From positions 1 through 32,788 of the forward strand of contig NZ_FONL01000020.1 in NCBI RefSeq assembly GCF_900112895.1: DNA of 32,788 nucleotides, in the 5' to 3' direction. Position 1 is the first letter of the stretch. Every line of letters starts with the position of its first letter. Shown here piece after piece: positions 1 through 32,534 of the stretch. A program made the translations under genes and the position numbers. The notes below the pieces were generated by a model. It was not told the origin of the DNA. It ran no database searches and saw only the letters and a list, made by a program, of their open reading frames with translations. The stretch is from Succiniclasticum ruminis DSM 9236. GTDB taxonomy: Bacteria > Bacillota > Negativicutes > Acidaminococcales > Acidaminococcaceae.

Positions 1-126
1 GGCGAACCGGATTTCATCCACGAAGAAGATTTTATTTATTATGCCGAAGGGATGCAGGGCATCGGGTTAAAGATTGAAATTAAATATGGCAAAGTAACGG
101 AAATAAAATGCGGCGTTCTTAATTAA
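1..126 (+). CDS. C-terminal end of an unrecognised protein (5' end outside window)
   Basis: An open frame runs from the first base to a TAA at 124-126 and gives 41 residues, ending in KCGVLN. There is no start codon context, because the gene begins left of the window. The short tail is alternately acidic and basic (IHEEDF, KIEIKYGKV) and shows no motif I recognise. It is followed by a hairpin-plus-T-run terminator at 192-230, consistent with a real 3' gene end. It lies on the same strand as the RiPP precursor genes and could belong to the same accessory element. A maturation or transport protein for those peptides would be a natural guess, but nothing in the 41 residues shows it. Confidence 0.55.
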   Translation, partial: GEPDFIHEEDFIYYAEGMQGIGLKIEIKYGKVTEIKCGVLN

Positions 127-191
127 CGGATATTATACGGTACGGCGAAAACGGAGTATTGTATAACTATTAAGGTTTTTTTATGATCTCG

Positions 192-230
192 AACTCCCGT
201 CCTTCCTGTTTTCAGGCGGGAGTTTTGTTT
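192..230 (+). terminator. Rho-independent terminator upstream of the first Nif11 precursor
   Basis: The arms AACTCCCG (192-199) and CGGGAGTT (217-224) pair perfectly around a 17-base loop and are followed by TTGTTT. It ends the unknown gene at 1-126. It also lies only about 7 bases before the ribosome binding site of the next gene, so it could instead act as an attenuator in that gene's leader. Confidence 0.7.
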
Positions 231-250
231 GAGACGGGGAGGGTTTTATC

Positions 251-517
251 ATGCCGGTTAACAAAGACGAACTCACAAAAGACATGATTGAAAAAGCTAT
301 GGAGTGCAAGGATGCCGATGAACTGATCGCGCTGGCAAAGGCGGAAGGCTTTGCTATTACCAAAGACGAAGCGGAGGCTTACATGTCGGAGATGGCTGAT
401 GTCGAACTGAACGAGGAAACCCTGAAAAAGGTCGCTGGTGGCATTTGCTGGGATAATGTTCAAAATCCACATGAATGTGGCATAGATTGTATTTATAGTA
501 ATAATAATCAGGGTTGA
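251..517 (+). CDS. Nif11-type leader RiPP precursor peptide 1
   Basis: An 88-residue peptide with a 64-residue acidic, helical leader (MPVNKDELTK start) ending in VAGG, the double-glycine site expected for cleavage by a C39-type peptidase. The remaining 24 residues form the core, which begins ICWDNVQ and holds three cysteines and one serine but no threonine. This matches the nif11-like leader family, whose members feed lanthipeptide, azole or other post-translational modification enzymes. The start is chosen from GGGAGG at 237-242, 8 bases before ATG. The leader is about two-thirds identical to that of the next gene (43 of 64 positions by eye), while the cores are unrelated, which is typical of one maturase serving several products. 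No maturase, peptidase or exporter is visible in the window. The modification type is therefore unknown. Confidence 0.85.
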   Translation: MPVNKDELTKDMIEKAMECKDADELIALAKAEGFAITKDEAEAYMSEMADVELNEETLKKVAGGICWDNVQNPHECGIDCIYSNNNQG

Positions 518-574
518 AGGATACTAATCAGAAAAATTAGTTAAAAAATCCTGATTTTGCACAGTAAATGATTC

Positions 575-614
575 AACAGCCGTGGAACTTCAACATCCGC
601 GCTGTTTTGTTTTA
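575..614 (+). terminator. Terminator after RiPP precursor 1
   Basis: AACAGC (575-580) pairs with GCTGTT (601-606), extended by GTGGA against TCCGC with one bulged C. It is followed by TTGTTTT. Precursor 1 is therefore probably its own transcript. Confidence 0.65.
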
Positions 615-632
615 GTATGACAAATTGCAGTT

Positions 633-660
633 TTTATCAGTAAAGATAATATGATATAAT
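633..660 (+). promoter_or_regulatory. Candidate extended -10 promoter for RiPP precursor 2
   Basis: TGATATAAT at 652-660 is an extended -10 box. A weak -35 (TTTATC, 633-638) lies 16 bases upstream. It sits about 95 bases before the precursor 2 start. The same nine bases recur in front of the recombinase gene. Confidence 0.4.
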
Positions 661-755
661 TAAAAAAAATCCTATCAGCGTCAATTTTAGGAAGCCTGTC
701 TTGTATATATTAGTAAGAGGCATTTAAGCAAAGCAAATTTAAGGAGGAAGTTATT

Positions 756-992
756 ATGCCGATTAACAAAAACGAACTTACAAAAGAAATGATTGAAAAA
801 GCTATGCAGTGCAAAACTGCGGAAGAACTGATGACATTAGCGAAGGCTGAAGGTGTTGAGCTGACCAAAGAAGAGGCGGAAGCATATTTGGCTGAACTGG
901 AAGATTTAGAATTGGATGAAGGTATGCTCAAAAACGTGGCGGGCGGTCAGGACTACTCACATTGCAATGGCCGTTGTACGTCAAAATTATAG
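756..992 (+). CDS. Nif11-type leader RiPP precursor peptide 2
   Basis: A 78-residue peptide with a 64-residue leader (MPINKNELTK start) ending in VAGG, followed by a 14-residue core, QDYSHCNGRCTSKL. The core has two cysteines, two serines and one threonine, so a thioether ring, an azole or a simple disulfide are all chemically possible. The start is fixed by a strong AAGGAGGAAG ribosome binding site about 7 bases upstream. The leader is near-identical in length and pattern to precursor 1 (EMIEKAM, LAKAEG, AEAY and VAGG all conserved), so the genes are paralogues from a duplication in which only the core diverged. It has its own candidate promoter and its own terminator. No partner enzyme is present to the right, where the next gene is a recombinase. 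Confidence 0.85.
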   Translation: MPINKNELTKEMIEKAMQCKTAEELMTLAKAEGVELTKEEAEAYLAELEDLELDEGMLKNVAGGQDYSHCNGRCTSKL

Positions 993-1035
993 AAGTCGCA
1001 ATTTAGTATAGTAAATGAATTCTCGAAACCCATAA

Positions 1036-1077
1036 AACGCGTTCTGGCAATCAGCTTTGTCAGAACGTTATTTTTGT
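1036..1077 (+). terminator. Terminator after RiPP precursor 2
   Basis: CGTTCTG (1040-1046) pairs with CAGAACG (1061-1067), followed by TTATTTTTG. It separates the peptide gene from the recombinase transcription unit. Confidence 0.7.
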
Positions 1078-1125
1078 CTCGTTTTTGACAGGCCGTGATA
1101 TAATGAAGTGTAGTCAAAAACGAGA
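1077..1125 (+). promoter_or_regulatory. Dyad-flanked extended -10 promoter of the recombinase gene
   Basis: A perfect 13-base inverted repeat, TCTCGTTTTTGAC (1077-1089) and GTCAAAAACGAGA (1113-1125), encloses 23 bases that contain the extended -10 TGATATAAT (1096-1104). The dyad centre falls on the -10 box, so a protein bound to both arms would block transcription. The 49-base span is also about the size of a serine-integrase attachment site. Autoregulation or an att/crossover site are both possible, and the repeat itself is certain. Confidence 0.65.
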
Positions 1126-1135
1126 GGGTGATAAG

Positions 1136-2104
1136 ATGGACTCGCCGAAGGTAAAAAGGATTGCTAAGATTCCGGAATGGTTGAAAGAGCTGAAACTCCA
1201 GAAAGCGGGTATCGGGATATACTGCAGGGTAAGCACGTCGGAACAGCGGCAGCTGCGCAGCCTTTCCAACCAGATAACAAGCCTAATCAAGACTGTGCAG
1301 GGATGGGACTGTCTGCCGTATCTGAAAGACGTGTATGTCGATATTTACACCGGCACATCGGAGAACAAGCGCCCGGAATTCAACCGGATGCTGGACGACG
1401 TGAAAGCGGGGAGGATAAAGATCGTGGTGGTGAAAAGCATCCAGCGTTTCGGCAGGAACACTGTGACCGTAATGAGCGCCATAAATGACATCCGCCATGC
1501 CGGTGGTTATGTCTACTTTGAGGTGGAGAACCTGGATACGAAGACGGCCGCTAACGATAACATTATCACCATCATTGGGGGCACGTCCCAGGAGGAGAGT
1601 TACTTCAAATCCAAGAGCATCAAGTTCGGGATTCGGGAGAGCCTAAAGAACCCGAATTCACGTTTATACAACAGGTGTTGCTACGGGTATTGGAGTTATG
1701 ATGGGAAGATGATTCCGAAGGTGTTAGAGTCGGAATATGTGAAAGACATATTTAATTATTACAAATATGGATGCAGCCTATACGGGATAGCAAGGAAGCT
1801 GGAGGAGAGGGGGATTCCATCTCCGTCCGGGAAGAAAGTATGGAGAACTAAAACCATAGAAAATATTTTGAAAAACGAGAAATATACGGGAAATGTGATT
1901 GTCAAGTCAGTCATTAAGAATCCACAGACGGGTGAGGAAAGATATTTTAAAGCCTTACATCACCACGAAGGGATAATCAGTCAGGAACTGTTTGATGAGG
2001 TACAAAAAATATTTGTTAAACGGAGCAATATGGAACTGGGCCCTGATGGAAAAATGAGGAGGAAAAATACACATTACAGTTCCAAAAAGCGACAATTCGA
2101 GTAG
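1136..2104 (+). CDS. Serine recombinase, C-terminally truncated (resolvase plus recombinase domains)
   Basis: A 322-residue site-specific DNA recombinase of the large serine family. The N-terminal resolvase domain (about residues 25-165) has YCRVST with catalytic Ser33 and the SIQRFGRNT arginine motif. A recombinase domain follows (about 175-280, including LEERGIPSPSGKKVW and ILKNEKYTGN). The ATG at 1136 is chosen because AGAGGG lies 7 bases upstream; in-frame TTG 1085 and ATG 1103 fall inside the promoter dyad. The protein stops shortly after HYSSKK, the place where family members normally continue into a cysteine zinc ribbon and coiled coil, so it is shorter than the usual 450-550 residues. 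It lies about 190 bases from the broken pilus ATPase gene, the position expected for an integrase at an element end. It may be a decayed integrase or a naturally short variant. Confidence 0.8.
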   Translation: MDSPKVKRIAKIPEWLKELKLQKAGIGIYCRVSTSEQRQLRSLSNQITSLIKTVQGWDCLPYLKDVYVDIYTGTSENKRPEFNRMLDDVKAGRIKIVVVKSIQRFGRNTVTVMSAINDIRHAGGYVYFEVENLDTKTAANDNIITIIGGTSQEESYFKSKSIKFGIRESLKNPNSRLYNRCCYGYWSYDGKMIPKVLESEYVKDIFNYYKYGCSLYGIARKLEERGIPSPSGKKVWRTKTIENILKNEKYTGNVIVKSVIKNPQTGEERYFKALHHHEGIISQELFDEVQKIFVKRSNMELGPDGKMRRKNTHYSSKKRQFE

Positions 2105-2297
2105 TCAAAAAAGCCGAAAATAAATAGATAAGTAGCTAAAATCGAAAAAATTAGATTAAAAAAATATTGAAGATATTAATATTCTGAAAACTTACGAACA
2201 TAAAAGAATCCGCATTATATGCGGGGTTGAGTGGCATAGACTGACATAACAATTAAGAAAAATTAAAATAAAAAAGACCGTTCGTATACGAATCGTA
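2105..2297. other. AT-rich non-coding stretch between recombinase and pilB remnant
   Basis: I see no coding frame here. The stretch is A-rich and contains a small palindrome, CCGCAT-N3-ATGCGG (2210-2224), and the left part of the nested palindrome at 2278-2307. It probably holds the end of the inserted element and the junction with the pilus gene. Confidence 0.5.
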
Positions 2298-2307
2298 CTA
2301 CGAACGG
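2278..2307. repeat. Nested palindrome at the element/pilB junction
   Basis: CCGTTCGTA (2278-2286) and TACGAACGG (2299-2307) are perfect inverted repeats 12 bases apart. The inner sequence is itself palindromic: TTCGTATACGAA (2281-2292) and TACGA-A-TCGTA (2287-2297). The right arm lies inside codons that still encode conserved pilB residues (LRTDPD). It could be an attachment site, a protein-binding site or a cruciform. Confidence 0.6.
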
Positions 2308-2891
2308 ACCCCGATATTATCATGATAGGGGAGATACGTGACCGGGAAACGGCGGAGATAGCCATTCAGGCAGCGCTGACCGGGCATTTGGTGTTCAGCA
2401 CCCTGCATACCAATACAGCGGCCGGCGCCGTTACACGGCTGCTGGACATGGGCATCGAACCTTATCTGGCAGCATCAGCCCTGCGGGGGGTTGTGGCTCA
2501 GCGCCTGGTACGAAAACTTTGTCCTGCCTGCAAAGAAAAATATATGGCGGATAAAGGCATGTGGGGATGGAAGCGCTTTCGAAATCCTGTCTGTGACGAA
2601 AATATGGGGGATGCATTGAAACCGCCTGATGGTTTGATCTTATACCGGCAATCCGGTTGTGACGCATGCCGACGGTCCGGATACCGGGGACGTATGGCTG
2701 TTCATGAAGTGCTGCCGGTCAATGCGGTTTTAAAAGATAAAATTAGCCGCGGCGCTTCGGAACAGGAACTGTGGAACGCGGCAAAAACAGTATTTCCTGA
2801 CATTTCTTCCCTGGAAGAGGACGGCATGCAAAAGGTAAAACAGGGCATTACGTCGGTACAGGAATTACTGCGGGTGCTGGGGACGGTGTGA
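2298..2891 (+). pseudogene. pilB: C-terminal remnant of a PilB/GspE-type secretion ATPase
   Basis: The frame encodes the C-terminal third of a type IV pilus extension / type II secretion ATPase. It has the Walker B region ([15 protein letters not shown], with codons from 2298), the [12 protein letters not shown] motif, and the four-cysteine metal site (CPAC at about 2523, CDAC at about 2661), followed by [10 protein letters not shown]. The N-terminal domains and the Walker A loop (GPTGSGKTT-like) are absent. Immediately upstream is AT-rich recombinase DNA. A methionine at 2322 could start a 189-residue product, but it has no good ribosome binding site and could not bind ATP. It ends one base before pilT, as in an intact pilB-pilT operon. 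The 5' half may survive on the far side of the element, outside the window. The exact family (PilB, GspE or ComGA) is uncertain; pilT next door favours PilB. Confidence 0.75.
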
Positions 2892-2892
2892 G

Positions 2893-3879
2893 ATGAACTG
2901 CAGGATAGATGAGATTCTGCTGAAGGCAGCGGAAATGAACGCATCCGATCTGCATATCAGTGAAGGGGGATCCGTTATTGTCCGTATTGCCGGGACGCTG
3001 ACAAAACCGGGCAGCGTACTGTCTGACGTTTTTTCCCTGTTTGAACCGGTTCTGCCGGGTAAACAGCGTGTTGCACTGAAGCAGTACGGTGAGTGCGATT
3101 TTGCTTATGCGCTTCCATCCGGGCAACGTTTTCGTATCAACTTATACCGCAGCATGGAAGGGCTGGATGCTGCCGTCCGGATTATTCCCAACAGCATTCC
3201 TACATGCAGTGGATTGGGATTGCCGGAAGCACTGCGGAAACTTTCAGAATTAAAAAGCGGCCTCGTGTTGCTTACCGGTGTTACGGGTTCCGGTAAAAGC
3301 ACGACACTGGCCGCGATCGTTAATGAAATTAACAGGCACAGGGCTGTACACATTTTGACGCTGGAAGATCCTGTAGAATACAGATTCGCTTCAGACAGAA
3401 GCCTGATCCATCAGCGGGAGATTGGCAGCGATACAGTGGATTTTGCATCCGGGCTCAGGGCGGCGCTGCGGGAAGATCCGGATGTGATCGTTGTCGGGGA
3501 ACTGCGTGATCTGGAGACGATTTCTATTGTTGTCACAGCAGCGGAAACCGGCCATCTGGTTTTGTCTACGCTCCATACCCGCAGCGCGGTAGAGACCGTT
3601 GATCGTATTATTGACGTGTTCCCTGAACAGCAGCAACGGCAGATCCGTGTCCAACTGGCCGGCTGCCTGCAGGCCGTGGTTTCACAACAGCTTCTGCCGG
3701 ATAAGCGGGGCGGCAGGACGGCGGCTTTTGAAATTATGATAGTTACACCCGCTTTGCGCAATCTGATCCGCGAAGGGAAGACACAGCAGATGGGCTCTTA
3801 TCTTCAAACCGGCGGTCAGTATGGCATGCAGACAATGGAGGCTGCCCTTGAGGAATTAAAGCGAAGAGGACGGGTTTAA
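2893..3879 (+). CDS. pilT: Type IV pilus retraction ATPase PilT
   Basis: A 328-residue hexameric ATPase that drives pilus retraction at the cytoplasmic side of the inner membrane. The N-terminal PAS-like part begins with the family signature MNASDLHISEG. Walker A is GVTGSGKSTTL (about residues 132-142). The Asp box is LTLEDPVEYRF, Walker B is LREDPDVIVVGELRD, and the His box is ETGHLVLSTLHT. Length is normal for PilT, slightly short at the C-terminus (usually about 345-350). The start lies one base after the stop of the upstream pilB remnant, so the two were cotranscribed. If pilB is broken here, pilT may depend on a promoter within the remnant or inside the inserted element. Its 3' end overlaps the 3' end of the minus-strand CpXC gene by 24 bases. 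Confidence 0.9.
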   Translation: MNCRIDEILLKAAEMNASDLHISEGGSVIVRIAGTLTKPGSVLSDVFSLFEPVLPGKQRVALKQYGECDFAYALPSGQRFRINLYRSMEGLDAAVRIIPNSIPTCSGLGLPEALRKLSELKSGLVLLTGVTGSGKSTTLAAIVNEINRHRAVHILTLEDPVEYRFASDRSLIHQREIGSDTVDFASGLRAALREDPDVIVVGELRDLETISIVVTAAETGHLVLSTLHTRSAVETVDRIIDVFPEQQQRQIRVQLAGCLQAVVSQQLLPDKRGGRTAAFEIMIVTPALRNLIREGKTQQMGSYLQTGGQYGMQTMEAALEELKRRGRV

Positions 3880-20523: not shown

Positions 20524-21798
20524 ATGAAAGGCGGAATGGAGAAAGAAATGAAAGACTTTACATTCAACACGATTGAAGAAGCCATCGCTGCCATCAAGGC
20601 AGGGAAGATGGTGCTGGTAACCGATGATGAGGACCGGGAAAACGAAGGCGACCTGATCATGGCGGCCCAGTTCTGTACAGGGGAGTCCATCAATTTTATG
20701 GCAAAGGAAGCCCGGGGCCTCATCTGTATGCCGGCCGATGCCGAAATCATGGACAAGCTGCAGTTCGGCGCTATGGTTTCCCACAATACGGACAATCATG
20801 AAACGGCTTTTTCCGTTTCCATCGATCACGTGGATACTACGACGGGCATTTCGGCTTACGAGCGGGCTTATACCATGAAAAAAGTAACGGAACCCGGTGC
20901 CCAGGCCATGGATTTCCGGCGGCCGGGCCATGTGTTCCCGCTGCGCAGCCGTAAAGGCGGGGTGCTGGTGCGGACCGGGCACACGGAAACCACCACGGAC
21001 TTGTGCAGGCTGGCGGGCCTGACACCGGTAGGCATCTGTTGCGAAATTATGGATGAAGACGGCCATATGATGCGCACACCCCAGCTGATTGAATTCGCGA
21101 AGAAACACAATCTGGTGTTCGTAACGGTGGCCTCGCTGGTGGCGTACCGCAAGCAGCATGAAAAGATGGTGCACCGGGTGGCGGAGGCAAAGCTGCCTTC
21201 CAAATTCGGCACCTTTAAAATTATCGCCTATGAAAACGATTTGGACGACTTATGCCACATCGCCCTGGTCAAGGGAGAGGTTGCAGGGAAAAAAGACGTG
21301 ATGGTGCGGGTTCATTCGGAATGCCTCACCGGTGACGCATTCGGCAGCCTGCGCTGCGACTGCGGCGACCAGCTGGCTTCCGCCCTGCGCATGATTGAAA
21401 AAGAAGGCTGCGGCGTTGTGGTCTATATGCGACAGGAAGGCCGGGGCATCGGGCTGGCCAATAAGATTCGGGCTTATGCGCTGCAGGAGCAGGGACTGGA
21501 TACCGTGGAAGCCAATGTGCGGCTGGGATTTGCCCCGGACCTGCGGGACTACGGCATGGGCGCCCAGATTTTATCGGACCTGGGTCTCACCAGTGTGCGG
21601 CTTATTACCAACAATCCGGCAAAACGGGCCGGTTTATCCGGTTACGGCATCACGGTCACCGGACGTGTACCCATTGAAATTGCACCCAATCAGTACAATG
21701 AGTTTTACCTGGAAACGAAAGAAAATAAAATGGGGCATGAATTGTCGGACCTGCATCTGGGGTGCGGCTGCGGGAAAGGAAAACCGTCATCTGAATGA
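20524..21798 (+). CDS. ribBA: Bifunctional DHBP synthase / GTP cyclohydrolase II RibBA
   Basis: A 424-residue fusion catalysing the two entry reactions of riboflavin synthesis. The N-terminal 3,4-dihydroxy-2-butanone-4-phosphate synthase domain (to about residue 210) has the acidic loop [12 protein letters not shown] and the RPGHVFPL signature. The C-terminal GTP cyclohydrolase II domain has zinc-site cysteines in [17 protein letters not shown] (about 267-283) and [12 protein letters not shown]. The tail GCGCGKG is cysteine-rich. The start at 20524 follows GGGAGC; in-frame ATGs at 20539 and 20551 are alternatives. RibA and RibB being fused is usual in Firmicutes. Confidence 0.97.
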
Positions 21799-21876
21799 TA
21801 ACAGGGAGCGTCATCAGGTAACTTTGCAATAGTTAAAATTTTTATAAATAAACACTGAATAACAGGAGGTTGACAA

Positions 21877-22338
21877 ATGAAAACACTGGAAGGTATGTTA
21901 TCGGCAAAAGGATTGAAGCTGGCGATTGTAGTTTCCCGGTTTAACGAATTTATCACCAGCAAATTGTTGGGCGGCGCGGAAGACGCCATCCGCCGCACAG
22001 GGGGCAACACTGAAGAGGTGGTTCTGGTCTGGGTGCCCGGGGCATATGAGATTCCCCTGGCTGCGCAGAAACTGGCGGAAAGCGGAAAGTTTGACGCAGT
22101 GATTGCGCTGGGAGCGGTCATCCGCGGTTCCACTCCGCATTTTGATTATGTCTGCGCGGAAGCGGCCAAGGGTGTGGCCCAGGCGTCCATGAAGACCGGC
22201 GTGCCGGTGGCGTTCGGAATTCTGACTACGGAAAATATCCAGCAGGCCGTGGAGCGTGCCGGAACCAAAGCAGGGAATAAGGGCTATGACGCAGCCATGA
22301 GCGCGATCGAAATGGTCAACCTGTTCAAGAAATTATAA
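21877..22338 (+). CDS. ribH: 6,7-dimethyl-8-ribityllumazine synthase
   Basis: A 153-residue enzyme that joins the pyrimidine from RibD with DHBP from RibB to form the lumazine, often as a 60-subunit shell. Signatures are [15 protein letters not shown] (substrate-binding Phe), [28 protein letters not shown] with the catalytic His, and [12 protein letters not shown]. The ribosome binding site ACAGGAGG is strong. It completes the pathway ribD-ribE-ribBA-ribH under one FMN riboswitch. Confidence 0.97.
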
Positions 22339-22363
22339 AACAGAGTTACGATAAGGGATTACC

Positions 22364-23296
22364 ATGGAAGAAATCAAAACGAATACAGTTGATAAAACCG
22401 AAGATAAAACTGCCAAAGCAAAATTTGCCGGCGAAGCGGATATCCTGACCCGCGCTACTGTGGGGGATGCGCGCATCTACGTTGCTCGGACCACCCGTCT
22501 GGTACGCAAGCTGTCCCTGCGCCATAAGGCGTCCCATCTGGCCACCGCAGCCCTGGGACGTACCGTGACCGGTGCACTGTTGCTGGCGGCCACCATGAAA
22601 AATGAAGAAGGGGTAGGCATAAAAGTTTCCGGCGACGGACCGATCCAGGGCATCACGGGAGAAGCACAGGGAGGCATTGCCCGGGGTTATGTGGGCAACC
22701 CGGATGTGTATCTGCCGCCGAAAAACGGACATCTTGATGTTGGCGGCGCAGTTGGCAACGGCACTATTTCCGTGACCCGATACACAGCCGGCGCGAAACC
22801 TTTTACGGGAACAGCGGAACTGGTGGACGGCGAGATTGCCGACGATCTGACAAGATATCTTTACACCTCCGAACAGACGCCGTCTTCTGTAGGTCTGGGC
22901 GTACTGGTGGACGAAACAGGCGATGTGCAGGCGGCAGGGGGCTGGTTCATCCAGGCGCTGCCCAACTGCAGTGAAGAAACGTTGGAACAGCTGGACAAAA
23001 ATGTGCGGCATACGCCTTATGTTTCCAGTCTCATCGATATGGGCTTTACCCCGGAGCGGATCATTCAGATGCTGGGAAAAGATATGAAAGTGGAGATACT
23101 GGACAGCTATCCGCTGCATTTCGGCTGCCGCTGCAGCCGGGAGCGGGTAGAAGGCGTCCTGCAGACCCTGCCGAAAAAAGAGCTGAACCAGCTGGCGGAG
23201 GATGAGAAAACCGAAATTACCTGTCCGTACTGCAATGCAAGATATGAGTTCTCCCGGGAAGAGATAAAAAAACTTGCGCAAAAGGCAAAAAAATAG
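22364..23296 (+). CDS. hslO: Redox-regulated chaperone Hsp33
   Basis: A 310-residue cytosolic holdase that is activated when its zinc centre is oxidised. The C-terminal redox switch is complete: CRCS (CXC, about residues 256-259) and CPYC (CXXC, about 287-290). The N-terminal domain carries TRLVRKLSLRHKASHLATAA and GDGPIQGITGEAQG, typical of Hsp33. The first about 25 residues are a charged Lys/Thr-rich extension before the family start; an in-frame alternative methionine is not evident. It follows ribH by 25 bases with no visible terminator, so it probably shares the FMN-controlled transcript. Confidence 0.93.
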   Translation: MEEIKTNTVDKTEDKTAKAKFAGEADILTRATVGDARIYVARTTRLVRKLSLRHKASHLATAALGRTVTGALLLAATMKNEEGVGIKVSGDGPIQGITGEAQGGIARGYVGNPDVYLPPKNGHLDVGGAVGNGTISVTRYTAGAKPFTGTAELVDGEIADDLTRYLYTSEQTPSSVGLGVLVDETGDVQAAGGWFIQALPNCSEETLEQLDKNVRHTPYVSSLIDMGFTPERIIQMLGKDMKVEILDSYPLHFGCRCSRERVEGVLQTLPKKELNQLAEDEKTEITCPYCNARYEFSREEIKKLAQKAKK

Positions 23297-23311
23297 AAAG
23301 AGGGGAATACC

Positions 23312-23725
23312 ATGCTGAATCAGATTTCATTGTTTGCAGCCAACACGAAAGGCGCGTTAAGTAAAATAACAGGCGTGCTGGCTCAGTCAGATGTTAATAT
23401 TTATACGATGCTGGCGACGGACAGTGCGGAGTTCGGCATTGTCCGGCTGATCGTTGACAAATCCGAAGAGGCAAAGTCCGCTTTGGAAAAAGCCGGCTAC
23501 CAGTGCCGGCTGGACAAAGTCCTTGCCATTGACATGGCTTCGGACAAGCCGGGCACCCTGAACCGGATCCTTTCCGATCTGCAGAATGCCAATGTGATGA
23601 TCCGCTATCTGTACATTTCCTTTGACCGCAGCGACAGCACGCCGATTGCGGTGTTCTGTACCGATGAACCGGAAACGGAAACGTTCCTACGGGGCAAAGG
23701 CTACCGGCTGCTGGACCGTTTTTGA
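23312..23725 (+). CDS. Tandem ACT-domain protein
   Basis: A 137-residue protein made of two ACT domains (about residues 1-65 and 70-137), the small ligand-binding fold used for amino-acid sensing. Both copies start with a Gly-containing loop (ANTKGALSKITGVL, SDKPGTLNRILSDL) where the ligand usually binds. It has no catalytic domain. Family members are annotated only as ACT-domain or amino-acid-binding proteins. It follows hslO by 15 bases with AGAGGGG before the ATG. It is convergent with the DAHP synthase gene across a shared terminator. That makes a role in sensing aromatic amino acids tempting, but position is the only support for it. Confidence 0.85.
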   Translation: MLNQISLFAANTKGALSKITGVLAQSDVNIYTMLATDSAEFGIVRLIVDKSEEAKSALEKAGYQCRLDKVLAIDMASDKPGTLNRILSDLQNANVMIRYLYISFDRSDSTPIAVFCTDEPETETFLRGKGYRLLDRF

Positions 23726-23793
23726 TAGTTCCGGATATGAAAGTGGCTGAAGAAGCGAAGGCCGGCAGGGCTTGTTTCCTTAAGCCTTTATAA

Positions 23794-23878
23794 AAAACCG
23801 AAGCATATGCCTCAAAGGGGCCCCTTCGACGAGCGAAGCGGGGAGGGGGAAAAGAGGCATATGCTTCGGTTAATTTTT
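23794..23878. terminator. Large bidirectional terminator between convergent genes
   Basis: AACCGAAGCATATGCCTC (23796-23813) is exactly complementary to 23854-23871, with A-runs to the left and TTAATTTTTT to the right, so it can work on both strands. The 40-base loop holds a second, shorter hairpin (CCCCTTCG against CGAAG-C-GGGG, about 23821-23842). Confidence 0.85.
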
Positions 23879-23893
23879 TAAAAAGAGAATGAA

Positions 23894-24928
23894 TTACACC
23901 ATCTCTGCCAGTTCCAGTATCAGGCGCTCGCTCTTGGCCCAGCCCAGGCAGGGATCGGTAATGGAGCGGCCGTACACGCCGCCGCCGATTTTCTGGTTGC
24001 CGTCTTCCAGGTAGCTTTCAATCATGATGCCTTTGACCAGCTGCCGGATATCGGGGGAGACCTGACGGCTGTGCATCACGTCTTTGGAAATGCGGATCTG
24101 TTCCAGATATTTTTTCCCGGAATTGGAGTGGTTGGCGTCCACAATGACGGCCGGGTTGACGACGTCCCGTTCGTGGTAGGCGTCCAGCAGTCCCTGCAGG
24201 TCTTCATAATGGTAGTTGGGCATGTTGTTGCCGAATTTGTCCACATAACCCCGCAAAATAGCGTGGGCCAGAGGATTTCCTTTCGTGCGCACTTCCCACC
24301 CGTGGAACAGGAAACTCTGTTCGTGCTGGGCCGCTTCAATCGAATTCATCATGACGCCGATGTCGCCGCCGGTGGGGTTCTTCATGCCTACGGGAATGCC
24401 CACGCCGCTGGCGATCATCCGGTGCAGCTGGTCTTCCACGGAACGGGCGCCGATGGCTGCATAGGATAAAATGTCGGAAAGGTAGCGGTGGTTTTCCGGG
24501 TACAGGATTTCTTCCGCACTGGTGAGACCGGTTTCCTGCACCACCCGCACGTGCATCTTGCGGATAGCGGTAATGCCCGCCAGCATGTCTTCCTTTCCTT
24601 CCGGATTGGCCTGATGCAGCATGCCTTTATAACCGACGCCGATGGTCCGGGGTTTGTTCGTATAAACCCGGGGGATCAGCATCAGTTTGTCTTTAACTTT
24701 TTCCTGCACGCCGGCCAGACGGTGTATATAATCCAGCACAGCGTCTTCATTGTCGGCGGAGCAGGGGCCGATTACCAGGATGAAACGGTCATCTTTGCCG
24801 GAAATAATATCTCTGATTTCTTTATCTCTTGCTGTTTTGGCGGCTGACGCTTCGGCGCCGAGAGGATAATCCTGCATCAGTTCCTGGGGCGACGGCAGCT
24901 TCCGTATGAACTCCATCTGCATTTCCAT
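23894..24928 (-). CDS. aroF: 3-deoxy-7-phosphoheptulonate (DAHP) synthase, type I
   Basis: A 344-residue enzyme that condenses phosphoenolpyruvate and erythrose 4-phosphate, the committed step of the shikimate pathway. It is of the AroF/G/H (class I alpha) kind: VIGPCSADNEDAVLDY (about residues 52-67), YTNKPRTIGVGYKG (phosphate-binding), GMKNPTGGDI, and DANHSNSGKKYLEQI with a metal-binding His. An N-terminal extension of about 20 residues, the part that carries feedback sensitivity in this class, is present (MEMQMEFIRKLPSPQEL). The ATG at 24926-24928 follows GGAAATGAGGAAAC on the minus strand. aroF, aroG and aroH cannot be told apart from the sequence alone. Confidence 0.93.
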   Translation of the reverse strand: MEMQMEFIRKLPSPQELMQDYPLGAEASAAKTARDKEIRDIISGKDDRFILVIGPCSADNEDAVLDYIHRLAGVQEKVKDKLMLIPRVYTNKPRTIGVGYKGMLHQANPEGKEDMLAGITAIRKMHVRVVQETGLTSAEEILYPENHRYLSDILSYAAIGARSVEDQLHRMIASGVGIPVGMKNPTGGDIGVMMNSIEAAQHEQSFLFHGWEVRTKGNPLAHAILRGYVDKFGNNMPNYHYEDLQGLLDAYHERDVVNPAVIVDANHSNSGKKYLEQIRISKDVMHSRQVSPDIRQLVKGIMIESYLEDGNQKIGGGVYGRSITDPCLGWAKSERLILELAEMV

Positions 24929-25023
24929 TTATGTTTCCTCATTTCCTTTCGAATTGTATATATAATACCATACTTTCACAAAGAGCGTTGAAAAATTACT
25001 GCTAAAAAGGTTACAGCTCTGTA

Positions 25024-25052
25024 TTGACAAATCGAACTTCTGTTTGTATAAT
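25024..25052 (+). promoter_or_regulatory. Consensus sigma-A promoter of recA
   Basis: TTGACA (25024-25029), a 17-base spacer and TATAAT (25047-25052): a perfect vegetative promoter, 41 bases before the recA start. Confidence 0.92.
25033..25046 (+). promoter_or_regulatory. LexA (SOS) operator in the recA promoter
   Basis: CGAAC-TTCT-GTTTG matches the Gram-positive LexA box (CGAAC-N4-GTTCG) with one change and lies exactly between -35 and -10, where LexA would block RNA polymerase. lexA itself is not in the window. Confidence 0.85.
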
Positions 25053-25092
25053 GATTGCAGGAAAGTTTTCGACGAACGCAGGAGGTTTAGTT

Positions 25093-26166
25093 ATGGCAGG
25101 TATTTCAAATGATAAATTAAGGGCGCTTGACAGCGCCATGCGGCAGATTGAAAAAGATTTCGGCAAAGGTTCCATCATGCGTCTGGGCGAAGCCAGCGCC
25201 AAGATGAATGTGGAAACCATTCCTACAGGAGCTTTGTCCCTGGATATTGCATTAGGTGTCGGCGGCATCCCCCGGGGGCGTGTTGTGGAAATCTACGGGC
25301 CGGAATCTTCCGGCAAAACGACAGTAGCGCTGCATATGATCGCGGAAGCCCAGAAGATGGGAGGCTATGCGGCTTTTATCGACGCGGAGCATGCCCTGGA
25401 TCCGGATTATGCCCGCCGTCTGGGCGTGGATGTTGATAACCTGCTGATTTCCCAGCCGGATAACGGGGAACAGGCTCTGGAGATCTGTGACGCGCTGGTT
25501 CGCAGCGGCGCCATTGATATCATCGTCATCGACTCTGTAGCGGCCCTGGTACCCCGGGCGGAAATCGAAGGGGAGATGGGGGACAGCCATGTAGGCCTGC
25601 AGGCCCGGCTTATGAGCCAGGCGCTGCGTAAACTGACCGGTATCATTTCAAAATCAAAATGCGCCACGATCTTTATCAATCAGATTCGTGAAAAAGTGGG
25701 CATTATGTTCGGCAACCCGGAAACCACCACCGGCGGCCGTGCGCTGAAATTCTATTCTACCATCCGCATGGAAGTACGGAAGGTGGAAGCCATCAAGAAC
25801 GGCAATGATGTCATCGGTTCCCGCACCCGTATCAAGGTAGTCAAAAACAAAGTGGCTCCGCCTTTTAAGCAGGCAGAGTTCGACATTATGTACGGACAGG
25901 GAATTTCCCGTACCGGCTGCCTGGTGGACCTGGGCGTGGATCTGGATATCCTGCAAAAGAGCGGCGCCTGGTTCTCATACGGAGACGTGCGTATCGGTCA
26001 GGGCAGGGAAAAAGCCAAGGAATTTTTACGGGACAACCCGGAAGTGGCGGCGGAAGTGGAAGCAAAGATCCGCGAACTCACTGTTAATAAACTGATGGCT
26101 CCGAAGGAGTTGGAAGGAGTAGCGGCAGATGTTCCGGAACGCCAGCAAATCCCTGACAACCAGTAA
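25093..26166 (+). CDS. recA: Recombinase RecA
   Basis: A 357-residue ATPase that forms filaments on single-stranded DNA, pairs homologous strands and triggers LexA self-cleavage. Walker A is GPESSGKTT (about residues 67-75), DAEHALDP follows, Walker B is VIDSVAAL (about 142-149), loop L1 is [20 protein letters not shown], and loop L2 is [16 protein letters not shown]. The start at 25093 follows AGGAGGTTTAG; the open frame further upstream overlaps the promoter. Expression should be SOS-induced through the LexA box. recX overlaps its 3' end by 38 bases. Confidence 0.98.
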
Positions 26167-26644
26167 TGAAGTTTACGAATATGCGTTAAGCCTGCTGGAC
26201 CGCCGGGAACACGGTGAAAAGGAGCTGGTGCAGAAGCTGCGGCGGCGCTGTTCTTCTTCTGAACTGATCCGGGAGACTGTGGCAAAGCTGAAAGAATACG
26301 ACTTGCTTAATGAAGAGCGCTATGCCAGACGCGTCTTTGAATCCTGGCGGAGCAGAAAGGTCTATGGAAGGCTGCATCTGCAGGCGGAGCTTTTGAAAAA
26401 ACAGGTGGGCGAGGCATATATTCCTGCCATCCTGGCCATGCTGAGCGAAGAAGAAGAAATGCAGCGTGTGCGGGCAGCGTACCGGCAGATAGCGGGTCGG
26501 CACGATAAAAAATACGACTGCGCGACGGAAAAAGGCGTGGCTGCGCTGGCGCGGTATTTCTCTGCCAGAGGATTCGGGCCATCCATGATTCGAGTGGGCC
26601 TGGCCCTGGCGAAGGAAGAAGCCATGTCAAAGGTTCAGGAATAG
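26129..26644 (+). CDS. recX: RecA regulator RecX
   Basis: A 171-residue, helix-rich protein that binds RecA filaments and limits their activity. It shows the RecX repeat pattern: [23 protein letters not shown] (about residues 17-39), [27 protein letters not shown] (about 52-78), and a third repeat with [18 protein letters not shown] near the C-terminus. The ATG at 26129 lies inside the end of recA with GGAAGGAG about 10 bases before it; the 38-base overlap implies translational coupling and joint SOS control. A terminator follows. Confidence 0.9.
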
Positions 26645-26697
26645 TACGTGTGTGATTCGTAGGCTGATGAGTCAGTTGTAATCTGAAAAATGGAATA

Positions 26698-26766
26698 TCC
26701 CCAAAAAGACAGGGCCGGCACAGAAACGCATTTCAGCATTGCCGCCTTGACTTTTTGGGGATTTTT
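26698..26766 (+). terminator. Terminator after recA-recX
   Basis: TCCCCAAAAAG (26698-26708) pairs exactly with CTTTTTGGGGA (26751-26761) and is followed by TTTTT. The inner part (GGCCGGCA against TGCCGCC) can extend the stem. Confidence 0.85.
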
Positions 26767-26916: not shown

Positions 26917-28440
26917 GTGATTGCTGCAGTTGTAGCTTTGGCCGTTGGCGGCGGCGCAGGTTATGTGTTACGCAAGAATGTGGCGGAAGGCAAGCTGGCC
27001 ACAGCGGAAGAAAAAGCGAACCGCATGATCAAAGAAGCCGAAGAAACAATTGAAGCAAAGAAAAAAGAATCCTTAATGGAAGCTAAGGATGAGATTCATC
27101 GTTTACGTTCCGATATGGAACGTGAAAATAAAGAACGGCGTAACGATCTGCAAAGACAGGAACGCCGTCTGGTACAGAAAGAGGAAAATCTGGACCGCAA
27201 GATTGACGCTTTCGAAAAGAAAGAAGAAAATCTTACAGTAAAAGAATCCAAACTGAATGCTGCACAGGAAAAGGTCGACGCCCTTTACCAGAGACAGTTG
27301 CAGGAACTGGAACGGTTATCCGGTTTAAGCAGCGAAGACGCGAAGCAGGAACTGCTGGCTGCAGTCCGCGACGATGTACAGCATGACACTGCCGTTATGA
27401 TCAAGGAAATGGAACAGCGCGCGAAAGAAGAGGCCGATAAAAAGGCCCGGGACATCATTGCGCTGGCCATCCAGCGCTGTGCTGCCGATCAGGTGGCGGA
27501 GACTACGGTTTCCGTAGTCGGCCTGCCCAATGATGAAATGAAAGGCCGGATTATCGGCCGTGAAGGCAGGAATATCCGTACGCTGGAAACCCTGACAGGC
27601 ATTGATCTGATTATCGATGATACTCCGGAAGCAGTTATTATTTCCGGTTTTGACCCCGTACGCCGGGAAGTTGCCCGCATCGCCCTTGAAAAGCTCATCA
27701 ATGATGGACGGATTCATCCGGCCCGTATTGAAGAAATGGTTGAAAAAGCCCAGAAAGAGGTTGAGCAGAACATCAGGGAAGCCGGTGAACAGGCAACCTT
27801 CACCGTTGGTGTCAACGGTCTGAGGCCAGAGCTTATCAAATTGCTGGGACGTCTGAAATACCGTACCAGCTACGGGCAGAATGTGCTGAATCATTCCATT
27901 GAAGTGGCACAGCTGGCCGGCATCATGGCCTCTGAATTGGGCGTGGATGTTACATTGGCAAAACGTGCAGGCCTCCTGCATGATATTGGCAAGGCGATTG
28001 ACCACGAAATGGAAGGTTCCCATGTGGAACTGGGCGTGGAAGTTGCCAAGAAGTTCCGTGAGTCCGGATTTGTAATCAATGCAATCGGTTCCCATCACGG
28101 GGACATTGAACCCAATTGCGTGGAATCTGTACTGATTGCCGCTGCTGACGCGGTATCTGCTGCCCGTCCGGGCGCCCGCAGAGAGACTCTGGAAAGTTAC
28201 CTGAAACGATTGACACGATTGGAAGAGATTTCCGAATCCTTTGACGGTGTGGAGAAGTGCTATGCTGTTCAGGCTGGCCGCGAGATCCGCATCATGGTTA
28301 AACCCGAAGTCATTGACGACACGAAAGCCGTTTTGCTGGCCCGCGATATCTCCAAGAAGATTGAGGAAGAAATGGAATATCCCGGACAGATTAAGGTGGT
28401 CATCATTCGTGAGACCCGGGCTGTTGACTATGCGAAGTAA
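26917..28440 (+). CDS. rny: Ribonuclease Y
   Basis: A 507-residue membrane-anchored endoribonuclease that starts mRNA decay in Firmicutes. An N-terminal membrane helix (about residues 1-18) is followed by a long charged coiled coil (about 25-160). A KH RNA-binding domain comes next, with [15 protein letters not shown] (about 212-226). The HD domain has [10 protein letters not shown] and the catalytic [10 protein letters not shown] (about 352-361), and a C-terminal domain ends the protein. The GTG at 26917 is the first conventional start. However, the strong AGGAGGTG (26890-26897) lies 19 bases before it and only 7 bases before an in-frame ATT at 26905, which would give an N-terminus FETVIAAVV after the initiator Met. 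The true start is therefore open. A terminator follows at 28445. Confidence 0.95.
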
Positions 28441-28444
28441 ATAT

Positions 28445-28480
28445 ATGGCTGCGTTCCGCAAGGCTCGCAGCCATTTTTTA
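28445..28480 (+). terminator. Terminator after rny
   Basis: ATGGCTGCG (28445-28453) pairs with CGCAGCCAT (28466-28474), followed by a T-run. The next ribosome binding site starts within 5 bases of it, so it may also attenuate the downstream gene. Confidence 0.8.
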
Positions 28481-28495
28481 AGAAGGTGATAATAT

Positions 28496-28969
28496 ATGCG
28501 TATACCGGGAGCCGGAGGAGTGCAGGATATCCGTATTTATGAGGTTGCGTTCCAGGATGCCTGGGAGCTGATTTTTGACTGTCTGAACGATATCGGCATC
28601 GATGTGGATGAACGGGATGATGAACATCACGTGATTCACGGACACAAAAGAAAGAAGTTCTTTGACGTTACCCTGCAGGACATGGGTGACGGCGCGGTAC
28701 AACTGTTCTTTGACCAGCATAAAAAATATATCGAAGTGTACACATGGAAGCCGGATTACAGTGATGTGGACGCGTTTTACAAGCTGTATGAACAGCGCCT
28801 CATTGAGATGAAGGCGTTCATCCGCTGCACCAGTTGCGGGCATAAGGTGAGGGCCAATACAAAATTCTGCCCGGAATGTGGAACCCGGCTCAATTTCAAT
28901 GAAGATGTCATTGACAATTCGGATGAGAAGAAGAGTATTTTTGATACAATTTTCCGGAGCGACGATTAA
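28496..28969 (+). CDS. Zinc-ribbon domain protein of unknown function
   Basis: A 157-residue, probably cytosolic protein. Residues 1-105 form an acidic, mixed alpha/beta domain I do not recognise (FQDAWELIFDCLNDIGIDVDE, VTLQDMGDGAVQLFFDQ). Residues about 110-132 are a double-CXXC zinc ribbon (CTSCGHKV and FCPECGTRL) of the kind often found at the ends of bacterial regulatory or scaffold proteins. The tail is acidic. AGAAGGTGATAAT precedes the ATG. It lies between the rny terminator and a foldback repeat and has no obvious operon partner. Read-through from rny is the only transcription source I can suggest, since no promoter fits in the 55-base gap. Confidence 0.75.
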   Translation: MRIPGAGGVQDIRIYEVAFQDAWELIFDCLNDIGIDVDERDDEHHVIHGHKRKKFFDVTLQDMGDGAVQLFFDQHKKYIEVYTWKPDYSDVDAFYKLYEQRLIEMKAFIRCTSCGHKVRANTKFCPECGTRLNFNEDVIDNSDEKKSIFDTIFRSDD

Positions 28970-28980
28970 CTAATGTACAC

Positions 28981-29169
28981 AAACCGTTGCAGCCGGTAAG
29001 ACATAAGCAAAACAGCGTGCGCGTTTGCGTCATTCCATAAGATGAAATGAGCCGGCCGTGGCGAGACTGTCTGAGGGGCGAAGCCCCGGGTTTCGACGCC
29101 ACAGGCGAATGAATCCATGGAATAGCAAATGGGAACGGTTTTGCGATGCCTTACCGGCTGCAATGGTTT
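28981..29169. repeat. 189-base foldback (MITE-like) element
   Basis: The ends are imperfect terminal inverted repeats of about 33 bases: AAACCGTTGCAGCCGGTAAG (28981-29000, continuing to 29013) against 29138-29169. The rest also folds: TTCCAT (29033-29038) with ATGGAA (29117-29122), GTGGCG (29058-29063) with CGCCAC (29097-29102), and a central GGGGC-GAA-GCCCC hairpin (29075-29087). I see no gene in it. It could be a non-autonomous transposable element or a structured RNA. Confidence 0.65.
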
Positions 29170-29189
29170 TTACGTTTTGTTATCTGCAA

Positions 29190-29222
29190 AACAAAAAAGC
29201 TGCTCTCCGAAGAGAACAGCTT
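29190..29222 (-). terminator. Terminator of rpmB
   Basis: Read on the minus strand, AAGCTGTTCTC, a TTCG tetraloop and GAGAGCAGCTT form a near-perfect stem followed by TTTT. It lies 17 bases after the rpmB stop. Confidence 0.9.
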
Positions 29223-29238
29223 ATTGTATCATTTCTGA

Positions 29239-29427
29239 TTATGCGCGGGTAACTTTGCCGGAACGCAGGCAACGGGTGCAGACATTCACGCGTTTCACTT
29301 CGCCGTCTACGACAGCCCGTACAGTCTGTACATTGGGCTTCCAGGCAGCTTTGGTGTGACGGTTGGAATGGCTTACGTTGTTGCCGGACATGATGCCCTT
29401 GCCGCATACTTCACAAATATGTGCCAT
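29239..29427 (-). CDS. rpmB: 50S ribosomal protein L28
   Basis: A 62-residue ribosomal protein. It begins MAHICEVCGKG and has the conserved SHSNRHTKAAWKPN block. Two CXXC pairs (CEVC at 5-8 and CTRC at about 50-53) identify the zinc-binding form of L28. GAAGGAGGTC gives a strong ribosome binding site on the minus strand. It is a single-gene unit, divergent from recG across about 150 AT-rich bases. Confidence 0.97.
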   Translation of the reverse strand: MAHICEVCGKGIMSGNNVSHSNRHTKAAWKPNVQTVRAVVDGEVKRVNVCTRCLRSGKVTRA

Positions 29428-29553
29428 CGTGGTTCGACCTCCTTCACAGAATCAAGCATATAGCTACTCATTAAATTAACATGAGTATATTACCACATGT
29501 GTAACTGAAAAGCAAGCATTTTTCAAAAATGTCAAAGAAAAAAGTGAAAATAA

Positions 29554-29562
29554 TGCTATAAT
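29554..29562 (+). promoter_or_regulatory. Extended -10 promoter for recG
   Basis: TGCTATAAT (29554-29562) is an extended -10 box 35 bases before the recG start. No good -35 is visible at the right distance. Confidence 0.45.
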
Positions 29563-29596
29563 CTATATATATTTAATGCAGAAAGGACGGGAAGGC

Positions 29597-31697: not shown

Positions 31698-32399
31698 ATG
31701 TCAGAAGATAAAAAGAAATGGTATCAGGACCCGGACGGGGTAACCAAAGTTGTGGCCCTTGTGCTGTTACTGTTACTGTTGCTGTGTATGCACCTGTTTG
31801 CCGGCGACGTAGTGCACAAGGCGGGCAGGCTGGCGGTCAGCGGCAACGTGAAAGCGCTGGCGGAATACCTGCGTTCCTTTGGCCCCTGGGCCATCTTCAT
31901 CAGCTTTTTTATTGATGTGCTGATTAACGCGGGCAGTATCTTTCCGTCCATCTTTTTGTCAACCGCCAACGGCCTCATCTTCGGTCTGCCCCTGGGCATC
32001 GCCGTGTCCTGGCTGGCGGAGACCACCGGCGTGGTGCTGAGTTTTCTTCTGATGCGTTTCTTCTTCCGCAACACGGCGGAAAAACTGATCCGGAAAGCCG
32101 ACCGCCTGCAGGACATCGACAAGGCCAGCGAAAAGAACGGCATTATCTGGATGACTTTTGCCCGGGCGCTGCCATATTTTCCTTCCGGCATCCTTACCGC
32201 TGTCGGCGCCCTGAGCCGTATGAGTACCAGGGACTATATCATAGCTAACCTGATTGGCAAATTTCCTTCCACGGCGCTGGAGGTGGTCATTGGTCACGAC
32301 GTGGTCCATTTCCGCGAAAGCATGGTCCGTCTGACGGTCCTTATAATTGTGGTGGCGGTGGTGTTTTATATCGGAAAGAAGAAGCTGTTTAAAAATTAG
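31698..32399 (+). CDS. VTT-domain (TVP38/TMEM64, DedA-like) membrane protein
   Basis: A 233-residue integral membrane protein. Predicted helices are near residues 17-37 (VVALVLLLLLLLCMHLF), 63-85, 95-120 and at the C-terminus (LTVLIIVVAVVFYIG). Between them lies the VTT-family core: GSIFPSIFLSTANGLIFGLPLGIAVSWL and the FARALPYFPSGILTAVGALSRM motif with conserved Arg and Pro. Family members are linked to phospholipid scrambling or flippase activity; the substrate here is unknown. ATG 31698 follows AGAAAGAAG; the open frame upstream overlaps recG. It is cotranscribed with recG (25-base gap) and ends in a strong terminator. Confidence 0.88.
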   Translation: MSEDKKKWYQDPDGVTKVVALVLLLLLLLCMHLFAGDVVHKAGRLAVSGNVKALAEYLRSFGPWAIFISFFIDVLINAGSIFPSIFLSTANGLIFGLPLGIAVSWLAETTGVVLSFLLMRFFFRNTAEKLIRKADRLQDIDKASEKNGIIWMTFARALPYFPSGILTAVGALSRMSTRDYIIANLIGKFPSTALEVVIGHDVVHFRESMVRLTVLIIVVAVVFYIGKKKLFKN

Positions 32400-32428
32400 G
32401 GTACGGACCGGTACATGCTGATACAGAA

Positions 32429-32462
32429 AAGAGGAACGGGTTATTCCCGTTCCTCTTTTTTT
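32429..32462 (+). terminator. Terminator after recG and the VTT gene
   Basis: AAGAGGAACGGG (32429-32440) pairs exactly with CCCGTTCCTCTT (32446-32457), followed by TTTTT. Confidence 0.92.
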
Positions 32463-32481
32463 GATTATGGCTTTAGCTTGG

Positions 32482-32534
32482 GAGCCGAATCCCTCAAGGG
32501 GATTTGGCTCAAAAACCACCTGCTACGCAGGTGG
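32482..32534 (+). repeat. IS200/IS605 left-end hairpins
   Basis: Hairpin 1 is GAGCCGAATCCC (32482-32493) folding to 32498-32510 around TCAA. Hairpin 2 is CCACCTGC-TAC-GCAGGTGG (32516-32534). TnpA of this family recognises such subterminal hairpins on single-stranded DNA. Confidence 0.7.

What the first reader, a model, noticed from the sequence alone, without database searches (positions are those of the whole stretch)
251..992. Pair of Nif11-leader RiPP precursors with unrelated cores
Two adjacent genes encode 64-residue leaders about two-thirds identical, both ending VAGG, followed by quite different cores: 24 residues with three Cys, and 14 residues with two Cys, two Ser and one Thr. Conserved leaders with divergent cores are the hallmark of combinatorial RiPP systems in which one maturase processes many substrates (known for Nif11/prochlorosin-type families). 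No maturase, protease or exporter is in the window, so the product class is open and could be new. The short QDYSHCNGRCTSKL core is unusually small.
Basis: partly seen in the sequence, partly recalled or inferred. Interest (0 to 1): 0.7.

Follow-up and report, generated by a model that had tools for sequence, protein, structure and literature searches.

The report
Phage-borne orphan peptide precursor genes
Two small genes for modified peptides appear to be cargo of a virus integrated in a gut bacterium's genome; they come without processing enzymes and most likely use the bacterium's own peptide-modifying machinery, which seems to serve about twenty similar genes scattered over the genome.

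Summary
In detail: two adjacent Nif11-leader genes (251-517, 756-992), leaders 43/64 identical, cores no more alike than shuffled sequence. They belong to a dispersed family: 22 such genes on 10 contigs of this genome, 124 in the loci read from 10 of 14 genomes of the genus. Cores differ within a genome, yet orthologous cores are conserved between species (pooled dN/dS 0.12). The machinery lies on another contig: a radical-SAM/SPASM protein, a cobalamin radical-SAM C-methyltransferase and an NHLM exporter with the genome's only C39 hit. No LanC-like or YcaO match was found, so prochlorosin-type chemistry is unlikely. The unexpected part is location. The window's pilB is split at base 2306; its other half lies on contig C26 beside some 74 kb with phage genes; a serine integrase (1136-2104) sits at the junction; a relative has the uninterrupted site. 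The pair is therefore most likely cargo at the integrase end of a temperate phage: substrates without enzymes, matured in trans by the host (inferred). Precursor 1 is a mosaic with a breakpoint inside the leader, and 240/240 bases left of it equal another species' DNA. Weak points: the C26-C24 gap is unclosed and no product has been seen.

The parts
1..126 (+). 3' end of a 152-aa gene that also follows precursors on C6 (10786-11244); contig break lies in this repeat
   Evidence: 94% identical to C6:11119-11286 over 168 bases; 100% to G009:C48 over bases 1-240
251..442 (+). Nif11 leader of precursor 1 (mosaic, breakpoint about 300-360)
   Evidence: TIGR03798 38.2 bits; mosaic profile
443..514 (+). 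core 1, 24 residues, 3 Cys (stop 515-517)
   Evidence: 91-92% identical cores in G002 and G009
575..613 (+). hairpin plus T-run, terminator-like, recurring after many genes
   Evidence: direct reading and pattern
756..947 (+). Nif11 leader of precursor 2
   Evidence: 43/64 identical to leader 1
948..989 (+). core 2, 14 residues, 2 Cys (stop 990-992); no relative found in loci held
1136..2104 (+). serine recombinase / phage-type integrase (322 aa from the ATG at 1136)
   Evidence: Resolvase and Recombinase domains (longer frame 1085-2104); phrog_95 integrase 236 bits
2278..2307 (.). imperfect inverted repeat next to the junction, candidate half of the attachment site
   Evidence: direct reading; not tested
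2306..2309 (.). GGAC shared by both junctions, candidate crossover core (right junction, attR)
2306..2891 (+). C-terminal part of the split pilB/T2SSE ATPase gene
   Evidence: PF00437 from profile position 216; other half at own C26:74387-75049 (-)

Best explanation
The pair are two members of a dispersed Nif11-leader RiPP precursor family of a gut Acidaminococcaceae bacterium (probably Succiniclasticum), carried as cargo beside the integrase of a temperate phage integrated into pilB. Shown by sequence: the two precursors, the family, the split pilB, the phage genes on C26, the integrase at the junction, the enzyme and exporter cluster on C18. Inferred: the precursors are expressed in the lysogen; their leaders are recognised by the host's radical-SAM/SPASM maturase and cobalamin radical-SAM C-methyltransferase, which modify the mostly Cys-bearing cores; the C39 domain of the NHLM exporter cuts after GG and exports the product. 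The phage brings substrates only and borrows the enzymes. Similar leaders act as homology arms through which cores are exchanged between loci, and the phage can carry them between species.
For: Family and cores. Enzymes and exporter. Maturase found in 8 of 59 genomes of the family, all among the 11 with leader matches. Split pilB, junctions and uninterrupted site in G002. Phage genes; IMG/VR holds a 72,931-bp viral record whose first 10,261 bases equal C26:50-10310. Integrase 0.2 kb from the junction. Mosaic leader and identical DNA in another species. Second phage-like contig with a precursor.
Against: C26 and C24 are not joined in the assembly; both end in repeats. Homologues of precursor 1 in G002 and G009 lie beside chromosomal genes (DNA methylase, Vsr, helicase, sensor kinase; DnaB), so phage carriage is not the rule. 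Leaders without a strong maturase match occur in G001 (75% complete), G011 and, weakly, G054. The maturase reaches no named family's cut-off. No expression or product data.
Confidence: 0.62

Rival explanations
1. The pair is an ordinary chromosomal array of the dispersed family; a rearrangement or nested insertion hidden in the unassembled gap makes it look like prophage cargo.
For: The gap is unclosed. The left end resembles arrays found beside chromosomal genes in own C6 and G009:C48. Most family members lie outside phages.
Against: Two halves of one pilB flank the element, with shared GGAC; integrase at one end, repressor at the other; G002 has the uninterrupted site. The pair lies on the integrase's inner side.
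Confidence: 0.15
2. The precursors are exported double-glycine peptides that the radical-SAM enzymes do not modify (for example disulfide peptides), or decayed passengers without a product.
For: No biochemical data; core 2 has no homologue in the loci held; other phage cargo can be inert.
Against: Core 1 is 91-92% identical in two other species and orthologous cores have dN/dS 0.12; leaders and maturase co-occur.
Confidence: 0.18
3. Prochlorosin-type lanthipeptides made by a promiscuous LanM.
For: Nif11 leader, scattered precursors and divergent cores are prochlorosin features (PMC10783134, passages).
Against: No LANC_like match in the genome, one of 14 control genomes ringing; no YcaO, five controls ringing. 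DUF4135 also none, but its controls were silent, so that search says little.
Confidence: 0.02

Closest known systems
Prochlorosins / synechococsins (Nif11 leader; PMC10783134, passages read)
   Same: Nif11-type leader ending GG, many divergent cores, precursors scattered over the genome, one enzyme system
   Different: Here radical-SAM enzymes instead of LanM; a firmicute-lineage gut bacterium; two precursors (and one more on C26) lie in a prophage; orthologous cores conserved between species
Sublancin of prophage SPbeta (PMC6391423, passages; SPbeta in spsM, start of abstract of PMC4191935)
   Same: A RiPP precursor inside a prophage that is inserted in a host gene
   Different: SPbeta carries the whole sun operon with enzymes, exporter and immunity; here no enzyme or exporter was seen beside the precursors
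NHLM / TIGR03975 RiPP clusters (NCBIfam)
   Same: TIGR03975, TIGR03794 and TIGR03797 pass their cut-offs in the C18 cluster
   Different: The SPASM maturase reaches no equivalog cut-off (best 124.8 bits of 600), so its chemistry is unassigned; TIGR03796 scored 805.3 of 853.3 bits on the 647-aa piece given

Membership tests
Nif11-leader RiPP precursors (TIGR03798 / PF07862) | precursor 1 over the curated cut-offs | tested here: met
   38.2 of 32.3 and 24.4 of 23.8 bits
Nif11-leader RiPP precursors (TIGR03798 / PF07862) | precursor 2 over the curated cut-offs | tested here: not met
   26.5 of 32.3 and 19.7 of 23.8 bits; kept as a paralog of precursor 1 by 67% leader identity
Nif11-leader RiPP precursors (TIGR03798 / PF07862) | GG-type leader end followed by a variable core | tested here: met
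Prochlorosins (class II lanthipeptides) | LanM with LanC-like domain | tested here: not met
   PF05147 no match in the genome, one control genome ringing
Prochlorosins (class II lanthipeptides) | lanthionine rings in the product | not testable with these tools
   no product
Radical-SAM-modified RiPPs with NHLM export | radical-SAM/SPASM maturase and NHLM C39 exporter in the genome, with a precursor beside them | tested here: met
   C18:21769-36010
Radical-SAM-modified RiPPs with NHLM export | these enzymes modify the window's precursors | not testable with these tools
   inferred from the shared leader
Cargo of a temperate phage | located between the phage attachment junctions | tested here: inconclusive
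   junctions and empty site shown, contig gap between C26 and C24 open
Cargo of a temperate phage | packaged in virions and expressed in the lysogen | not testable with these tools
   needs induction and sequencing

The most novel reading that the evidence does not exclude
Temperate phages of gut Negativicutes carry RiPP substrates without enzymes as lysogenic-conversion cargo. The lysogen gains new modified peptides made by its own dispersed-precursor system, and through leader-to-leader recombination the phage becomes a vehicle that swaps cores between species. A second phage-like contig with a precursor plus two accessory proteins suggests it is not a single accident.
Probability: 0.45. Interest if true: 0.75.

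Novelty: new variant of a known kind. Interest (0 to 1): 0.6.

Why it matters
Why some bacteria keep dozens of RiPP substrates for one enzyme set is an open question, known best from prochlorosins. This genus offers a case with different enzymes, with cores that look selected, and with a concrete route of spread (a phage, and recombination inside leaders). It also warns that mining which looks for enzymes next to precursors would miss most of these genes, and it gives a clear test of maturation in trans.

Tried and rejected
LanM/YcaO chemistry: rejected after (one search is weak, its controls were silent). 'Unusually small core': rejected, 29 of 110 cores have 14 residues or fewer. 'Stand-alone Nif11 domain with a fixed tail': rejected by the core comparison. 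Known structured RNA in the first 2400 bases: none in Rfam at E 0.1. A mobile cassette with shared promoter and terminator: upstream homology exists between precursor 2 and three other own precursors (C33:8701, 23940, 26563) and a similar hairpin recurs downstream, but the hairpin looks like a generic terminator, so I make no cassette claim. tblastn of precursor 1 against 50,697 phage records: no match. L139 joins parts of a C26 recombinase and the window's integrase; I could not tell a real arrangement from an assembly chimera and draw nothing from it.

Rows dropped before counts: of 25 own matches, three fragments lacking the leader's end (C37:39627, C33:23626, C16:994) are not among the 22; one of the 22 (C33:8384) lacks the leader's start. 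Of 61 planned stretches around relatives' precursors 60 were fetched; G013:C71 was left out for the limit of 20 per call, so its precursor is not among the 124. Of the 124, 110 were used as full-length. In one search three loci (L057-L059, maturase 29-31% identical, no leader found) are not among the ten close ones. In one search all 14 genomes match the maturase at E 0.001, but six only at E about 1e-5, as expected of generic SPASM proteins; I count matches at E 1e-30 or better.

Full report
WHAT IS THERE. The window is contig C24 (1-32788) of a 2.54-Mb genome in 39 contigs, 98.24% complete. ORFs 251-517 and 756-992 are as described: 64-residue leaders, 43/64 identical, ending VAGG, and cores of 24 and 14 residues no more alike than shuffled sequence (21% against 24%). 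Leader 1 passes the Nif11 leader models; leader 2 falls short of the cut-offs but aligns with the same set.

THE FAMILY. TIGR03798 and a model of the genome's own leaders find such genes on contigs C6, C12, C13, C16, C18, C24, C26, C33, C35 and C37. I read 22 with a complete leader end, 21 of them full-length. Over the 210 pairs of the 21, leaders average 68% identity and cores 25%, where shuffled cores give 21%. In the genus 10 of 14 genomes have leaders. The loci read (60 of 61 planned stretches, plus the own genome's) held 124 precursors, 110 full-length, in 61 core families at 60% identity: 40 singletons, 20 families in two or more genomes. Cys is in 104 of 110 cores, two or more in 85.

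CORES ARE KEPT. In 64 ortholog pairs between genomes pooled dN/dS is 0.150 for leaders and 0.120 for cores. The pairs were chosen for similar leaders and cores, which lowers both values, and are not independent. For precursor 1 the core is 91-92% identical to those of G002 and G009, the leader 75-78%. So the cores look like a set of distinct conserved peptides rather than a neutral library. Core 2 had no relative among the loci held.

THE MACHINERY. The only C39 match in the genome is on C18. Its cluster holds a DUF7005 protein (21769-22659), a radical-SAM/SPASM protein with CNFRCPYC (22767-24377), a Nif11 precursor (24484-24738), a cobalamin-type radical-SAM C-methyltransferase of TIGR03975 (480.8 bits, cut-off 281.85) with CWWAARHPCRFC (24806-26743), an RND-type adaptor (27037-28206), an NHLM HlyD protein (28203-29159), an NHLM C39-ABC protein (29164-31383; TIGR03796 gave 805.3 bits of 853.3 needed, on the 647-aa piece I submitted), an NHLM ABC2 protein (31423-34143) and a 620-aa protein whose only Pfam match is SPASM (34148-36010). 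A second SPASM maturase, 55% identical, is on C37 beside one precursor and a leader fragment. The SPASM enzyme reaches no named family's cut-off; its best matches are CefB, TIGR04463, Clo7bot and PapB. Cys-linked thioethers are therefore a guess, not a result. LanC-like and YcaO proteins were not found.

HOW WIDE. The hub maturase has relatives of 69-96% identity in ten named loci of Acidaminococcaceae, Succiniclasticum and Selenomonadaceae/Selenomonadales MAGs, one labelled Lachnospiraceae; nine of the ten have a Nif11 leader in the flank held. In five of the ten the core after the maturase is the same type (CYMVDGC[AS]FKCGTLKDC), so the hub's own substrate is conserved. In 59 genomes of the family leaders match in 11 and the maturase in 8, all among those 11. 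Exceptions: G001 (75% complete), G011 (two partial leader matches) and G054 (weak leader matches) have leaders without it; in G012 and G013 it matches in pieces.

THE ORGANISM. No name is given. The closest named record is an Acidaminococcaceae MAG from goat duodenum (RGIG2291, 96%), whose contig has the length of G002:C28 (96,461); a Succiniclasticum MAG contig has the length of G012:C27 (17,032). The genus is therefore probably Succiniclasticum (inference).

THE PROPHAGE. Homology to an intact pilB/T2SSE ATPase begins at base 2306. Eleven relatives have a match; ten have frames of 402-483 aa, one is cut by a contig start; G008 and G010 had none at E 1e-20. The missing part is at own C26:74387-75049, minus strand, 90% identical to G002's, and ends in the same GGAC that stands at 2306-2309. 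G002:C17 runs unbroken from the window's side to the C26 side, the two matches overlapping by three bases: an uninterrupted site. From 74386 down to 1, own C26 carries genes that PHROGs calls repressor, DNA polymerase, terminase, portal, head protease, major head, tape measure, central tail fibre and two integrases (order), then a 1668-aa protein without family, a Sel1 protein and another Nif11 precursor (C26:50-310). IMG/VR holds a 72,931-bp viral record whose first 10,261 bases equal C26:50-10310. The window's recombinase (phrog_95, 236 bits) ends 0.2 kb from the junction, where an integrase is expected, and both precursors lie on its inner side. The element would be at least 76.7 kb. The C26-C24 join is not assembled: the left ends of both contigs lie in repeats, so further DNA may lie between.

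MOSAICISM. Window 1-240 equals G009:C48 at 240 of 240 bases and 241-300 at 57 of 60; that G009 stretch ends in a truncated leader. From about 361 the window is closest to the complete ICWDN precursors of G009 and G002. Bases 301-360 are equally unlike both (43-45 of 60), so a third parent is possible. The change falls inside the leader. The two species differ elsewhere (81% in the hub maturase, 72% in the pilB part) and the own C6 copy of the left part is only 94% identical, so recent exchange between species is likely. Contamination in the G009 assembly (2%) was not excluded.

CONTEXT OF THE HOMOLOGUES. In G002 the ICWDN precursor stands between a DNA methylase/Vsr/helicase group and a hybrid sensor kinase; in G009 near DnaB. 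Four genes of the G002 stretch and one of the G009 stretch were scanned; I did not test the rest for phage genes.

A SECOND PHAGE-LIKE CONTIG. IMG/VR contig L138 (14.4 kb, 10.2 kb held) begins with a Nif11 precursor, then a 601-aa relative (51%) of the 620-aa hub protein and a DUF7005 protein (51% to the hub's), then Gp157-like, Sak4-like and primase genes of phages.

HOW IT LIKELY WORKS. Precursors expressed from the prophage would be recognised through the shared leader by the host's C18 (or C37) enzymes, modified on the core, cut after GG by the C39 domain and exported. Only the parts list is shown; expression, recognition, modification, export and benefit are inferred.

WHAT IS KNOWN. Scattered Nif11 precursors served by one enzyme are known from prochlorosins (PMC10783134, passages). 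A prophage-borne RiPP with its full operon is known: sublancin of SPbeta (PMC6391423, passages). Searches: 'Nif11' with 'Negativicutes' 0 papers; 'Succiniclasticum' with 'RiPP' 2, livestock-feeding studies by their titles (listing only); 'precursor peptide', 'temperate phage', 'radical SAM' 1, on quorum sensing by its title (listing only); 'prophage', 'RiPP', 'precursor peptide', 'orphan' 5 (listing only); some searches gave longer lists, of which I looked into four papers by term search. The rumen culture survey PMC13289728 has no occurrence of Succiniclasticum or Nif11 in its main text. None of what I saw reports this system; most subscription papers are not held.

Noticed in passing
L237 (G012:C107:5012-5737), L049 from 8587, L052 from 8546, L055 from 5601: Nif11-leader precursors whose core is followed by a Hint-like (intein/hedgehog-type) domain of about 130 residues: Hint 29.2 bits in G012 (cut-off 29.7) and 31.8-33.5 in the other three. 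A possible self-cleaving precursor design.
   Followed up: partly
L138 (IMG/VR 3300021400_005598) 1-3504: A phage-like contig carrying a Nif11 precursor together with relatives of two hub proteins (620-aa SPASM-type and DUF7005).
   Followed up: partly
own contig C37:39597-39776 (-): A leader without GG or core, directly upstream of the second SPASM maturase; decayed gene or stand-alone leader domain.
   Followed up: no
own C26:6915-9889 and window 1136-2104: Three phrog_95-type recombinases in one presumed prophage, two adjacent on C26 and one in the window; their division of labour is unknown.
   Followed up: no
own C26:1412-6418 (+): A 1668-aa protein between the phage recombinases and a Nif11 precursor with no Pfam or PHROGs match; maybe further cargo.
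   Followed up: partly
window 31959-32519 (-) and own C35:30122-33307 (-): Antisense frames sharing the start MVFEPNPLEGFGSQAKAIIK, pointing to an interspersed repeat in the genome.
   Followed up: no
own contigs C13, C26, C33, C37 (ends): The same short frame (ERHANLKYKFGNRKFWATGYYVSTVGLNAQTIQKYIREQDKMDQ...), resembling an IS200-type transposase end (recalled), sits at several contig ends and probably broke the assembly.
   Followed up: no
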